64,000 bases of DNA, from the NCBI GenBank assembly GCA_963971405.1, contig OZ020485.1, positions 11,036,001 to 11,100,000 on the forward strand, in the 5' to 3' direction. Below the pieces are notes generated by a model. It had not been told where the DNA came from. It ran no database searches and saw nothing but the letters and a program-made list of their open reading frames with translations. Numbering within the stretch: the stretch's first letter is position 1; each line of letters begins with the position of its first letter. The DNA is from Psococerastis gibbosa. Lineage: Eukaryota > Arthropoda > Insecta > Psocodea > Psocidae. Below are positions 1-63,290 of the stretch, in pieces. Both the position numbers and the translations under genes were made by a program.

Positions 1-128
1 CCACCGACCTCTCATTGCATAATGCAAATGACATTGACGTGGTAGCAGATATCATTAATAAGTCTTGAATGTGCTACCACGTCAATGTCATTTGCATTCT
101 GCAATGAAAGGTCGATGGAAACCCCGCC
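1..128. mobile_element. Foldback MITE, inner-type arms around an outer-type loop; cut by window edge
   Basis: Bases 1-48 and 72-128 are near-perfect reverse complements, so the copy is almost one hairpin. The arm begins CCACCGACCTC and contains the octamer ATGCAAAT (22-29, and 90-97 on the other arm). The right tip ends ACCCCGCC at 128, and the matching left tip lies before base 1. The centre (GTGGTAGCAG to CTGCTACCAC type) is the loop found in the outer element at 4969-5359, while the arms match the inner element there. No coding capacity. It belongs to a family with 3-base TNA duplications, which suggests a PIF/Harbinger-like source by inference. Confidence 0.85.
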
Positions 129-4968: not shown

Positions 4969-5359
4969 GGCGCATGTTCCACCGACCGGCTAGGGCTAAA
5001 TACAAATACGGTGACGTGGTAGCAGACATTCATGACTTAGGCGGGGTTTCCACCGACCTCGCATTGCAGAATGCAAACGACATTGACGGAAATTTGAATT
5101 TTTCTTTTTATAGAAATCTATTAAAATGTCTGTACTTAACATATCCCATGACGCCATTTTTTAATTTTAGTTTGTTTGTGATTTTACTCTATGATCATTG
5201 ATCAATTTTAACTATGGCATAGAGTAAAACAAACATTTCCGTCAATGTCATTTGCATTCTGCAATGCGAGGTCGGTGGAAACCCTGCCTTAGTCTTGAAT
5301 GTCTGCTACCACGTCACCGTATTTGTATTTAGCCCTAGCCGGTCGGTGGAATATGCGCC
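4969..5359. mobile_element. Composite foldback MITE, outer element, copy B
   Basis: The arms start GGCGCATGTTCCACCGACCG, run through GGTGACGTGGTAGCAGACATT, and are mirrored on the right to TATGCGCC at 5359. The centre of the outer palindrome (GAC-TTA/TTA-GTC) is split by a second palindromic element at 5040-5288. The same nested arrangement recurs at 46723-47116, and in reduced form at 6082-6341. There is no coding potential: a 75-codon frame here only reads through an arm. Confidence 0.85.
5040..5288. mobile_element. Foldback MITE, inner element of copy B
   Basis: The arms begin GGCGGGGTTTCCACCGACC, carry GAATGCAAATGACATTGACGG in slightly altered form, and close with the complement ending CCTGCC. 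TTA stands on both sides (5037-5039 and 5289-5291), fitting a 3-base duplication. The 150-base loop includes TTGATCAATTTTAACTATGG and orients the copy. A solo copy in the same orientation is at 17547-17781. Confidence 0.85.
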
Positions 5360-6081: not shown

Positions 6082-6341
6082 GGCACCCATTCCACCGACC
6101 GGCTAGGGCTATTTACAAAAACAGTGACGTGGTAGCAGACATTCAAGACTTAGGCGGGGTTTCCACCGACCTCGCATTGCAGAATTGACGGAAATGTTTA
6201 TTTTCCTCTATGCCATAGTTAAAATTGATCAATGATCATACAGTAAAATCACAAACTAAAATTAAAAAATGGCGTCTTGAATGTCTGCTACCACGTCACC
6301 GTTTTTGTAAATAGCCCTAGCCGGTCGGTGGAATGGGCGCC
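6082..6341. mobile_element. Composite foldback MITE, copy C, internally deleted
   Basis: The outer arms match copy B (GGCACCCATTCCACCGACCG on the left, complement to GGGCGCC at 6341). TTAA lies on both sides (6078-6081 and 6342-6345). The inner element is present only as its left arm and half its loop. The loop then passes directly into the right outer arm at GGCGTCTTGAATG, removing the right inner arm. The left inner arm also lacks about 11 bases. Its loop runs opposite to copy B. Confidence 0.8.
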
Positions 6342-12960: not shown

Positions 12961-13106
12961 TTAGGTGGTTATTCCACCGACGTCAATAGTGATAGTGTTG
13001 GTGATATTGGCGTGATAGCAGACATTTTTAGACTGTCTTTAATGCCTGCTACCACGTCAATACCACCATTACTATCACTATTGACGTCGGTGGAATAACC
13101 GCTTTA
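12961..13106. mobile_element. Foldback MITE, GGTTATTCCACCGACGTC type, copy D
   Basis: The arms 12964-13012 and 13050-13103 are mirror images (GTTATTCCACCGACGTCAAT through TAGTGATAGTG). TTA lies at both ends (12961-12963 and 13104-13106). The loop keeps GATAGCAGACATT and its complement, the same loop module as in the outer elements at 4969 and 46723, although the arms are different. 140 bases, non-coding. Confidence 0.85.
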
Positions 13107-17543: not shown

Positions 17544-17784
17544 TAAGGCGGGGTTTCCACCGACCTCTCATTGCAGAATGCAAATGACATTGAATTTTTC
17601 TTTTTATATAGAAATCTATTAAAATGTTTGTACTTAACATATCCCATGACGCTATTTTTAATTTTAGTTTTTGATTTTACTCTATGATCATTGATCAATT
17701 TTAACTATGGCATAGAGTAAAACAAATATTTCCGTCAATGTCATTTGCATTCTGCAATGCGAGGTCGGTGGAAACCTCGCTTAA
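17544..17784. mobile_element. Foldback MITE, solo inner element, copy E
   Basis: Same arms and loop as 5040-5288 (GGCGGGGTTTCCACCGACC; loop TTGATCAATTTTAACTATGG), standing alone. TAA lies on both sides (17544-17546 and 17782-17784). It shows that the inner element can move by itself. The left arm is shorter than the right because bases after ACATTGA are missing. Confidence 0.85.
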
Positions 17785-27519: not shown

Positions 27520-29560
27520 AAAAAAAATCCCTTTCGGCTTTGGCCGATAAGGTATACGGAGATTCCGTAGACCCTGCTTTTCCTTCTACGCTATGTAGGA
27601 TAAAAATACTTCATTATTTTCCCGACCACAATATCAACACACAAAACACTCTTGTGTACCAAACAATGACGACTATGAACTTTTACTTATTAAATTATTT
27701 TCACTTTGACTGGACGTCATATTGAAATCGTTGATTTGTCGCAAAAAGTGTCGATAGCCATTATCGTAGATAATACTACGGGCTTTCAGACAAATTTTAA
27801 TTCATTCCTCTGCGACCAATATTAACTGAGATATGAATTATATAAGGTTTTAATCGGCCGCCATCTTGTAACTATATACTGGATCTAGCTGGTTAAAGAA
27901 GTCGATCAAGACATCACATTCGTATGATCAATTTTTGTGTCAAGTTTCATCAAAATGAGATAATATTTACGGAAGTTAGAGTGTATCCTAAAATTGATAT
28001 ATACACACTGCCCCAGACCATCCGTCCACCTACTTTTTCTCGAAAACGAATTACGTCAGAGGTCTGAATTTTTTTAATCATTACAAAGTGGGGATTGATG
28101 CATTTCTGGAAATTAGTTGGGAATTTTTTGGGGACCTGTAAGGGGGGTTTTGGGGGGGTCCATATGCTGTTTTTCGGAATAATCAAATGTAAAGGTATGT
28201 CAAATTGCACATCATTTGAAAGCTTATAAAGTGTTCATTCATAATTTGCAAAAATTTTGATTGTATCCGTACAGGTTCAGGTACAGGGAGTCTTTAAAAG
28301 TCAAACTTTGGGTACCTGTGGGCTATTAGTGTGCTGAATGCTAAAAGTCAAAACCAAATTTTCTGATAAAGAAAAAATAGGAGTACTTGACGATCTAACC
28401 TTGGTGTACCTGAGTTTTTCAGTTCAGGTACAGTAAGCAGCTAAAGTTTGAGATTAAATTTCTCTAAAATATCAAATGACATCATATGGCATGTTGTACG
28501 TTAAATGAAAGCTTATTACAAGAGTTGTCAAGTTGACTATACAAATCGTACCTGAACCTGCGCTTAAACGGGTAAAGGGGCGATGGGTGGGAATGGGCCA
28601 CCTAAAGCATGGCAAGTGACACCTCAAATGAAAGCTCATGACTTCAGCTTAACAATGACACACAAAGTTTAGTACCAATATATAAAAAAAAAAAAATTGT
28701 TTGTCGACATGTTCATTGTTTCTAGGTAAAGGGTTATAGTTCTTAAAAAATTGGTGGTATTGTGAAGGTACGGCGGTTTGTTTCATTAACTTGATAACTC
28801 TTCTAATAAGCTTTTATTTGAGGTACAGCTCCTGTCAAGCTTCGCGTGACCTACTCCCGCAGGTTCAGGAGCGATTTGTATAATTAACTTGATAACTCTT
28901 GTAATAAGCTTTCATTTAACGTACAACATGCCATATGATGTCATTTGATATTTTAGAGAAATTTAATCTCAAACTTTAGCTGTTTACTGTACCTGAACTG
29001 AAAAGCTCAGGTACACCAAGGTAAGATCATCAAGTACTCCTAATTTTTCTTTATCAGAAAATCTGGTTTTGACTTTTAGCATTCAGCACACTAACAGCCC
29101 ACAGGTACCCAAAGTTTGACTTTTAAAGACTCCCTGTACCTGAACCTGTACGGATACAATCATAATTTTTTGCAAATTATGAATGAGCACTCTATAAGCT
29201 TTCAAATGATGTGCAATTTGACATACCTTTACATTTGATTATTCCGAAAAACAGCATACGGACCCCCCCCCAAAAACCCCCCTTCCAGGTCCCCAAAAAA
29301 TGCCCAACTAATTTCCAGAAATGCATCAACCCCCACTTTGTAATGATAAAAAAAATTCAGACCTCTGATGACATTCGTTTTCGAGGAAAAGTAGGTGGAC
29401 GGATGGTCTGGGGCACCCTGTATGTATGTATATATATAACATTTTGAACGGAGGGTGGTTTTAGGGTCAGGGGGTCATGAAATGAAAAGTTTTGAAGACA
29501 ATTTCAGAAAGTCGAACATTGGTCGCCATCTCAATAGGTAGAAGAATCTCCCTAAAATAA
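27520..29560 (+). repeat. Dispersed repeat RA, copy 2, split by a long inverted repeat
   Basis: RA text runs from ATCCCTTTCGGCTTTGGCCG to about 28005 and resumes near 29425 (CATTTTGAACGGAGGGTGG) up to CTCCCTAAAAT. The break falls in the TATATA-rich segment that is continuous in copy 1 (near 1990-2010). Confidence 0.8.
28006..29421. mobile_element. Long inverted-repeat (foldback) element, 1.42 kb
   Basis: The left arm 28006-28565 and right arm 28862-29421 are reverse complements over about 560 bases with few differences. The loop is about 300 bases. The tip reads CACTGCCCCAGACCATCCG on the left and, complemented, CAGGGTGCCCCAGACCATCC on the right. Each arm contains the motif TTCAGGTAC several times and AAATGAAAGCTTAT-like words spaced about 290 bases apart. 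Frames of 78 and 86 codons in the two arms are mirror images of each other, not genes. It is inserted in repeat RA. The target is AT-rich and its duplication ambiguous. Confidence 0.85.
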
Positions 29561-42700: not shown

Positions 42701-42929
42701 ACCCGCTCAATTTTGCATAGGCCCGGCTGCCTTTACAACGGTACGTTTGAAGGAGCGGTGGGCATCTGATCGATACATCAACATGATGTTATGGCAAGTG
42801 ATGGATAATTGTTCAGACAGCTTGTCTTGGGGATTGGTGGTTCACGGTTTAGGTGAGTAGGAAAAGGTGACCGGGCCATTGATGTCGTGGCTAGAATTTA
42901 ATGTGCCTAAAATAGTCGTGGTAACCGTT
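39769..42929. other. Apparently single-copy stretch, 3.1 kb, no gene recognised
   Basis: The longest part of the window without a repeat I can match. Frames reach 93 codons (40866-41147), none with a familiar motif or signal peptide. If a host exon or conserved non-coding element exists in the window, this stretch and 49-52.8 kb are the likelier places, but I see no positive evidence. Confidence 0.4.
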
Positions 42930-43144
42930 GCTTTAATATTGTTTTCATTTTTTGACGATCTTTTTATGGATGCAGGTTTCAGCGTGAATGCGATCACCAG
43001 GCTGAATATTGCTTTAATATTGTTTTCATTTTTTGACGATCTTTTTATGGACGCAGGTTTCAGCGTGAATGGATTACCAGGCTGAATATTGCTTTAATAT
43101 TGTTTTCATTTTTTGACGATCTTTTTATGGATGCAGGTTTCAGC
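42930..43144 (+). repeat. Tandem array, period 80-81, three units
   Basis: GCTTTAATATTGTTTTCATT starts at 42930, 43011 and 43091. Each unit continues TTTTGACGATCTTTTTATGG and GCAGGTTTCAGCG. The spacer GCGTGAATG ... ACCAGGCTGAA appears in the first two units, and after the third it is followed by its own inverted complement (TTCAGCCTGGTGACCCATTC). The 81-base period keeps a frame open, giving a 72-codon repetitive product, which I take as incidental. Confidence 0.85.
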
Positions 43145-43321
43145 CTGGTGACCCATTCACGCTGAACCTTACCCTAAGCTCTTTGATTTATTGGACATCG
43201 GTATGTGTAACCCTATTGATTGCGCGGAAATTTTCTTGCTGCATTTATACTGCCTTGTGTAGGCTTAGCGATTAAGGAATGGTCCCCAACTCGTTCCCAC
43301 TCTTGGATAAGTACCAAATTT

Positions 43322-46722: not shown

Positions 46723-47119
46723 GGCGCATATTCCACCGACCTGCTAGTGCTAAATACAAATACGGTGACGTGGTAGCAGACATTCAGGACTTAGGCGGGG
46801 TTTCCACCGACCTCGCATTGCAGAATGCAAATGACATTGACGGAAATGTTTGTTTTCCTCTATTCCATAGTTAAAATAGATCAATGATCATACAGTAAAA
46901 TCACAAACAAACAAACTAAAATTAAAAAATGGCGTCATGGGATATGTTAATTACAAACATTTTAATAGATTTCTATAAAAAGAAAAATTCTAATTTCCGT
47001 CAATGTCATTTGCATTCTGCAATGCGAGGTCGGTAGAAACCCCACCTAAGTCTTGAAGGTCTGCTACCACGTCACCGTATTTGTTTTAGCACTAGCAGGT
47101 CTGTGGAAACCCCGCCTAA
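46720..47119. mobile_element. Composite foldback MITE, copy F, hybrid right tip
   Basis: The outer left arm is GGCGCATATTCCACCGACC and TACGGTGACGTGGTAGCAGA. Inside, at 46794-47046, sits the inner element with its loop reversed relative to copy B. The right outer arm repeats the complement (TGCTACCACGTCACCGTATT), but its last 20 bases switch to the inner-type tip (GGAAACCCCGCC). TAA stands at both ends (46720-46722 and 47117-47119). Same nesting site as copy B, so the composite moved as one unit. Confidence 0.85.
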
Positions 47120-61809: not shown

Positions 61810-63290
61810 AAGTTATGTCCTTCTTTTCCAGCCAATATCAATGTATACGGTAATCCAGCATTACTGGTCAAGAAAGGCCGGTCTTGGAGAGTTCTCCATG
61901 CCCGACTAGAAATGCAAGAATTTTTTCCCCCAGATACTGAAGCACTGTGCATTTGGATGTGTGTTGGGGAAATTATATTTGGCAGATCTGCAGAGTATGA
62001 TTATGGATATGGCGCGTAGATATTGGTCACCCCTGGTTCACATAAACATTGGACAGTTTCTATTTTTTATTTAATTTAGTACGTAAGCTATATTATAAAG
62101 ACTTGGTCGATGGAAGTTGTAGAGGACCAGGGTCACCGAGTTGAGGGGAGGGGGCAAAGGTCCAGCTGCCGCCGGGAAATTAACACGGTTCCACTCAAAG
62201 GGTTATACTACTGTAAGAATTAGTGCCTAATCCCTCCGGACCCTCCCCAGTGTCCAGAGTATATTTTACTAGGAAAATTTTTTATTAAATAACGTTAACT
62301 GCTTTTAAATTAAGTCGGTGTAAAAAAATAAGTGCCTATCTTTTTAAAAGACCTCCATTTCGTATCACAACAAGACAATTAAAGAAACCTCATGTTCCAT
62401 ACACCATTGCCATTAACCTTTACCAATCGGTTATTGGGAATGTACGATTTGCTTTTAATGTATTAATGAAATCATTTATTAACACCAACGTTGTGCCCTC
62501 CTTTGTGCGGACAATATCAATGTACGGTAATCCAGCAGTACTGGTCTAGAAATGCTTGTATCCACGTGTTGATCATGCTCTACTAGAAATGCTCATTTCT
62601 CCCAGATTCCGAAATATTGCAAATTTGGACGAGAGCCAGAGAAATACATATGTATTGATGAATTAATTAATGAATGCCTTAGTTATGTCTATCTTATGCA
62701 AAAAATAGCATCACTTGGCAAGAAACTATAGTCTCCAGCAGGGCTTCTTTCTTCATGCTCGATCAGAAATGTTGATATGTAGATCTGGAGCGCATTAATG
62801 TATTGATGAATGCCAAAGTTCCTTCTTATGCAGAGAAATATCAACATGTAGGGTAATCCAGCATTACTTGAAAATAAATGCGCGTTTCCAGCTATTCTTC
62901 ATGCTCGACCAGAAATGTTCATATGCAGATCTGGTTAATGAATGCCTAAGTTTATGACCTTCTTATGCTGAAAATATCAATCTAGGGTAATCCAGCATTT
63001 CTTGACAATAAATGCGTGTCTCCTGTTGTCTTCATGTTCGACCAGAAACGTGCAGATCTGGAGCGCATTAATGTATTGATGAAAGAATTATTGAATGTCT
63101 AAGTTATGAACTTCTTATGCATAAAATATCAATCGAGGGTAATCCAGCATTACTTGAAAATAAATGCGTGTCTCCAGCTGTTCTTGATGCTCGACTAGAA
63201 ATGTACATTTTTTCCAGATTCCGAAGTGCTGCACATTTGGATGCGTGCCAGTGAAATACATCCAGATCTGGAACTCATTAATGTATTTCT
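61810..63290 (+). repeat. Degenerate satellite-like array, units about 136-186 bases
   Basis: ATATCAA followed by GGTAATCCAGCATTACTTG occurs near 61836, 62514, 62838, 62974 and 63126, with a decayed unit near 62700. Each is followed by AATAAATGCGTGTCTCC, CATGCTCGACCAGAAATG, CAGATCTGGAGCGCATTAAT and a CTAAGTTATGAC...TTCTTATGC link. Unit length varies by deletion. A gap of non-matching DNA lies at about 62000-62500. Frames in it are incidental. Confidence 0.75.

What the first reader, a model, noticed from the sequence alone, without database searches (positions are those of the whole stretch)
1..128. Foldback MITEs that shuffle arms and loops: a chimeric copy
This copy joins the arms of the inner element (as at 5040-5288) to the loop of the outer element (as at 4969-5359). 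The switch occurs at the pentamer TGACG, present in both parents, on both arms symmetrically. A symmetric switch on both arms points to template switching or gene conversion through a hairpin intermediate rather than two independent events. A set of MITEs that recombine as exchangeable hairpin modules would be unusual.
Basis: partly seen in the sequence, partly recalled or inferred. Interest (0 to 1): 0.8.

Follow-up and report, generated by a model that had tools for sequence, protein, structure and literature searches.

The report
Hairpin mobile elements with mirrored arms
The supposed patchwork copy belongs to an ordinary repeated family of tiny hairpin-shaped mobile DNA that looks like the parent, not the offspring, of its neighbour; more interesting is that in related elements both arms change together, as if one arm were copied from the other.

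Summary
The element at 1-128 (138 bp; it starts 10 bases before the window) shares arms with the inner element (5040-5288) and part of its loop with the outer one (4969-5359). It is not one chimeric copy: all 40 scored genomic matches cover it, the other 39 at 94-96% identity. Exact arm-loop junction counts are 189, 12135, 0 and 8648: one combination is missing, so no shuffling is required. Intermediates join this element's arm to the outer element's arm in small steps. Simplest reading: the outer element began as this small element with the inner MITE inserted in its loop, and the composite then multiplied. TGACG lies in a block shared with other families. Template switching in a hairpin is the best explanation, inferred and not shown. 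Target sites look PIF/Harbinger (Tourist)-like; the link to a transposase was not tested.

The parts
1..128 (.). S element of the finding (whole element is -9 to 128; first 10 bases lie in the neighbouring stretch L046/L001). Left arm 10-34, TGACG 35-39, loop region 40-79, right arm and tip 80-128; the right loop half has a 2-base deletion against the family
4969..5359 (.). Composite element: outer arms (O type, R/R loop) around an inner element
5040..5288 (.). Inner element (I) inside the composite; flanked here by TTA and TTA
6082..6341 (.). Decayed composite of the O type; the right part of its inner element is lost
17547..17781 (.). Inner-type element (I) standing alone
46723..47116 (.). 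Composite with an earlier O arm (TGCTAGTGCTAAATACAAATACGG); its two tips differ
12964..13103 (.). Member of another family with the same GG tip, TTCCACCGAC and TGACGTGGTAGCAGA blocks but a different arm

Best explanation
The element at 1-128 is one copy of a family (S) of about 140-bp hairpin MITEs and represents the unmodified state, not a chimera. Proposed history: an I-type MITE inserted at TAA in the loop of an S element. The composite moved as one unit and multiplied. Its outer arms then changed step by step, both arms together, until they no longer resemble S. The insertion also turned the short loop into an unpaired bubble between two long stems, and copying one side onto the other mirrored the bubble in either direction (L/L or R/R); the R/R form spread most. 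The likely copying process is template switching at a hairpin during DNA synthesis (quasi-palindrome correction); gene conversion between the arms would look the same. Shown: the family, the counts, the intermediates, the paired changes, the three loop states and the predicted bubble. Inferred: the direction of change, the copying mechanism, and movement by a PIF/Harbinger-type transposase.
For: Family. Junction counts 189, 12135, 0, 8648. Stepwise arms S > L055 > L056 > L038/L054 > 46723 > 4969 > L040 > L033/L034. Early arms align to S better than shuffles (0, 1 and 3 of 5000 shuffles as good), the last do not (3006 and 2748 of 5000). 18 of 18 composites: 277 paired changes, 52 one-arm, 2 different; in random-site simulation 21 changes per arm coincide 2.5 times on average, at most 9 in 20000 runs. 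Loop states: of 7 composites with an L half that were read, 5 are L/R and 2 L/L; 11 L/L pairs in the 100 places listed of 681; 10727 R halves. Inner flanks TAA..TAA in 4 of 5 L/R copies, inverted TTA..TAA in 12 of 14 R/R copies. Solo S is L/R in 29 of 30 pairs, the 30th being the window copy with a deletion in its right half. Bubble of about 10 by 10 bases in an L/R copy, closed in an L/L and nearly closed in an R/R copy. 42 of 43 O-type arm halves adjoin an inner element; the exception is the decayed copy at 6341.
Against: Mirroring is incomplete: 9 inner halves in the sample carry a 10-base deletion on one arm; L055, L043 and 46723 have 5, 7 and 6 one-arm changes, L056 6 paired and 6 unpaired. 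The window composite 4969-5359 has TTA..TTA, not TTA..TAA, around its inner element. The direction S to O has no outgroup tree behind it. Composites share ancestry, so 277 paired changes are not 277 events. 78 of the 100 listed L halves have no listed partner and were not read. In 50 of 54 places where an arm ending ATTGACG adjoins an inner element the half is R, which does not fit S-armed composites being mainly L/R; their outer arms were not read.
Confidence: 0.7

Rival explanations
1. One reading: S arose by joining I-type arms to an O-type loop at TGACG on both sides, and MITE arms and loops are exchangeable modules.
For: S has I-like arms and an O-like right loop half; the TGACG block occurs with several arms and interiors; L035:5522-5660 has TGGTAGC after TGACG on one side and GAAATTT on the other.
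Against: O arm + GAAAT junction count is 0 against 12135 and 8648 for the other large classes; the S left loop half is absent from 4969-5359; arms of O and S are linked by intermediates; L022 carries S's arm and loop start in one piece.
Confidence: 0.1
2. Arms stay symmetric because selection for transposase binding removes mismatched copies, without any arm-to-arm copying.
For: TTCCACCGACC and TGACGTGGTAGCAGA are conserved across families at similar spacing, as binding sites would be.
Against: Many paired changes lie in the variable spacer and the loop half; selection does not itself explain why the same new base appears on both sides.
Confidence: 0.1
3. New symmetric elements form in one step by fold-back synthesis (snap-back copying of one end) during transposition or gap repair, rather than by repeated correction in place.
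For: It would also give L/L and R/R forms and paired changes.
Against: The arm series is gradual and includes copies with one-arm changes; the inner element is kept in R/R and L/L copies, and its own arms are often not mirrored.
Confidence: 0.2

Closest known systems
PIF/Harbinger (Tourist-like) MITEs such as mPing (PMC2836001, passages read)
   Same: Short, no coding sequence, many copies, 3-base target duplication TTA or TAA
   Different: Here the terminal repeats are about 49-59 bases and nearly the whole S element is a hairpin; a nested composite multiplied as a unit; transposase not linked
Template switching between imperfect inverted repeats (PMC8604942, abstract; PMC8794818, abstract and opening)
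   Same: Homogenises inverted-repeat arms and makes multi-base paired changes
   Different: Described there for coding DNA and RNA genes; here the record lies in a transposon family and follows insertion of one palindrome into another
Coral CMITEs (PMC2872659, abstract and passages)
   Same: Families share a conserved internal region while terminal repeats differ; one new element was made by a MITE insertion
   Different: TTAA target sites and piggyBac-like; short terminal repeats; no stepwise paired-arm series in what I read
Composite MITE AgaP2-P12MITE of Anopheles (PMC1562414, passages)
   Same: A MITE whose parts come from two element lineages
   Different: Its two ends come from two P subfamilies; here one MITE lies inside another

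Membership tests
MITE | Short, with terminal inverted repeats, many copies | tested here: met
   138-140 bp S elements, 391-bp composites; counts; hairpin
PIF/Harbinger Tourist-like MITE | 3-base target duplication TTA/TAA | tested here: met
   Of 58 element pairs 37 have TTA or TAA on both sides, 27 of these identical (19 TTA/TTA, 8 TAA/TAA) and 10 mixed; Fisher p = 0.027. The 10 mixed cases are unexplained
PIF/Harbinger Tourist-like MITE | Ends shared with a PIF/Harbinger transposase element of the same genome | not tested
   150 PF13359 matches scored in the genome, but no flanking DNA could be read
piggyBac/Kolobok-type MITE | TTAA target duplication | tested here: not met
   Flanks of the S copies and of the sample elements show TTA or TAA, not TTAA on both sides, as the rule
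Quasi-palindrome template-switch product | Mismatch bubble lies between paired stems | tested here: met
   Predicted DNA fold of L038:3509-3895
Quasi-palindrome template-switch product | Correction seen towards either arm | tested here: met
   L/L (L052, L054) and R/R copies beside L/R copies
Quasi-palindrome template-switch product | Change made in one event at one locus | not testable with these tools
   Needs the same insertion in two individuals or species

The most novel reading that the evidence does not exclude
Inserting one palindromic MITE into the loop of another makes a self-mirroring composite: the trapped loop becomes a bubble that hairpin template switching copies in either direction, and the arms then diverge as one locked pair, so new transposon families arise whose ends stay symmetric although unrecognisably changed. 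One genome holds a readable series of the stages.
Probability: 0.5. Interest if true: 0.65.

Novelty: new variant of a known kind. Interest (0 to 1): 0.5.

Why it matters
How long terminal repeats of MITEs stay identical while families diverge is seldom seen in action. Here intermediates from the unchanged arm to an unrecognisable one survive in one genome, and one loop exists in its original and both mirrored states, so arm-to-arm copying can be counted. It also warns that a shared arm plus a shared loop is not evidence of recombination.

Tried and rejected
Chimera and free module exchange: rejected on the four junction counts and the arm series. A single damaged copy: rejected. TGACG as a recombination site: rejected, since it is part of a block shared with other families. 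The two interiors differing by an 8-base indel (TGGTAGCA) after TGACG: noticed, not tested. Linking the MITEs to a transposase by reading transposase flanks failed for lack of DNA. Species not identified. Literature: in the listings of eight searches I saw no title or abstract start describing paired-arm divergence of MITEs; older work on hairpin amplification of teleost 'Angel' elements is recalled only. Corrections made on checking: one half in L044 had been detected twice, so one search counts 59 pairs and 13 systematic composites where there are 58 and 12; I had used 10 of the 18 composites with both arms, and one search uses all 18.

Full report
What is there. The window lies in a 409-Mb genome of 68 contigs, by its size and repeats a eukaryote; species not identified. 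The element at 1-128 is 138 bp long (-9 to 128), flanked by ATA on both sides, and folds into a near-perfect hairpin.

It is a family. A whole-genome DNA search gave 1941 first-look candidates, of which 40 were scored; all 40 span the element, one is the window copy and the other 39 are 94-96% identical to it. Thirty were read and aligned. Of 30 solo S pairs in the data, 29 have one L half (TATCATTAATAA) and one R half (CATTCAAGACTTA); the 30th is the window copy, whose right half has a 2-base deletion. These are best hits to one L/R copy, so the sample is biased. An exact pattern for the whole L/R loop has 89 matches genome-wide. I call this family S, the inner element I and the outer arm O.

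Do arms and loops shuffle? Exact junction counts over the genome: S/I-type arm + TGGTAGCAG 189; the same arm + GAAAT 12135; O arm + GAAAT 0; O arm + TGGTAGCAG 8648. The reversed-pattern control gave 0 each time. Three of four combinations fit a tree without exchange. The O patterns cover only arms ending AAAWACGG.

Wider view. I took the window plus twenty 10-kb stretches of C1 and C2 (264 kb; nineteen at set intervals, one next to the window), listed ends with TTCCACCGACC and paired them. Several families share a GG tip, TTCCACCGACC, a variable spacer of about 25 bases, and TGACGTGGTAGCAGA. TGACG is thus part of a conserved block. A 259-bp MITE in L022 runs from an S-like arm through TGACG into S's own L half (67 of 75 positions identical) and then into a different interior. 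So S's arm and loop start belong together.

The composite. Outer plus inner is itself a repeated unit: 12 composites with both ends in the 264 kb, 11 R/R and 1 L/R. Scaled up this is some 19,000 in the genome, a rough figure. Patterns for the unusual left half led to six more loci. L055 is a composite whose outer arms are nearly S: its left arm is partly changed, its right arm still S-like. L056, then L038 and L054, then the window copies at 46723 and 4969, then L040, L033 and L034 form a series. Over all 18 composites with both arms detected, changes from S identical on both arms number 277, changes on one arm only 52, different on both 2; per element the paired number runs from 1 (L055) to 22 (L012) and the one-arm number from 0 to 7. 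L051, L052 and L053 are not among the 18 because the right arm is shortened (L051) or cut by the fetched stretch. The composites share ancestry, so these are not independent events. A random-site simulation gives a mean of 2.5 and a maximum of 9 coincidences for 21 changes per arm. By direct comparison the last arms are no more like S than shuffled sequence (3006 and 2748 of 5000 shuffles as good), whereas the early ones clearly are (0, 1 and 3 of 5000). Among 18 complete pairs in the listing, 15 have the same arm variant on both sides against 9.6 expected.

The loop tells a similar story. Of the seven composites with an L half that I read, five are L/R (L038, L051, L053, L055, L056) and two L/L (L052, L054). 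Genome-wide there are 681 L halves beside an inner tip; the 100 listed hold 11 L/L pairs and 78 halves without a listed partner. R halves number 10727. Arms ending ATTGACG beside an inner tip number 54, 50 with an R-like and 4 with an L-like half; their outer arms were not read, and this excess of R is not what I would expect if S-armed composites were mostly L/R. In L/R copies the inner element has TAA on both sides in 4 of 5 (L055 has TAG on the right), in two of them with one extra base; in 12 of 14 R/R copies it has TTA and TAA, an inverted pair, as mirroring would leave; the window copy 4969-5359 is one of the two exceptions. Folding shows why mirroring may happen: in an L/R copy the two halves form a bubble of about 10 by 10 bases between the outer and inner stems, whereas an L/L copy is paired throughout this part and an R/R copy nearly so. 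Imperfect palindromes are a known substrate of template switching (PMC8604942, abstract; PMC8794818, abstract and opening).

Results against. Mirroring is incomplete: nine inner halves in the sample carry a 10-base deletion on one arm, and L043, 46723, L056 and L055 have 5-7 one-arm changes. The direction from S to O is inferred from the loop states, the flanks of the inner element and the finding that 42 of 43 O-type arm halves adjoin an inner element, not from an outgroup tree. Present-day S copies may be a later burst of an old type.

Kind of element. Flanks are TTA or TAA on both sides in 37 of 58 pairs, identical in 27 of the 37 (Fisher p = 0.027), which fits PIF/Harbinger (PMC2836001, passages). 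PF13359 transposase matches were scored at 150 places, but whether any has these ends was not tested.

Verdict. The copy is a member of a normal MITE family and most likely of the parental type. The chimera reading fails; the idea of symmetric change through a hairpin gains independent support from the composites.

Noticed in passing
37 element pairs (window, L002-L056): 10 of 37 have opposite target triplets (TTA on one side, TAA on the other) although both are TWA; a normal duplication gives the same triplet twice.
   Followed up: partly
win 6161; L033 1236 and 4327; L034 4051 and 4939; L035 3; L040 690; L044 4495; L046 9001: Nine inner-element halves carry the same 10-base deletion in the arm, on one arm of the composite, so inner arms are not mirrored there.
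   Followed up: partly
L031:6377-6801: A 425-bp element with other arms whose right interior (TTTACTCTATGCCATTGTTAAAATTGATC) resembles the inner element's interior; a possible relative of its parent.
   Followed up: no
L035:5522-5660: A 139-bp element with TGGTAGCAGACATT after TGACG on one side and GAAATTTTTGTTTTA on the other, perhaps the two ends of one ancestral element.
   Followed up: no
window 27997-29427: Large palindrome: inverted arms of 313 bp at 96% (28250-28562 and 28858-29170) inside further inverted arms.
   Followed up: no
window 42911-43147 and 62492-63261: Tandem copies of about 80 bp, and diverged repeated units further on, found.
   Followed up: no
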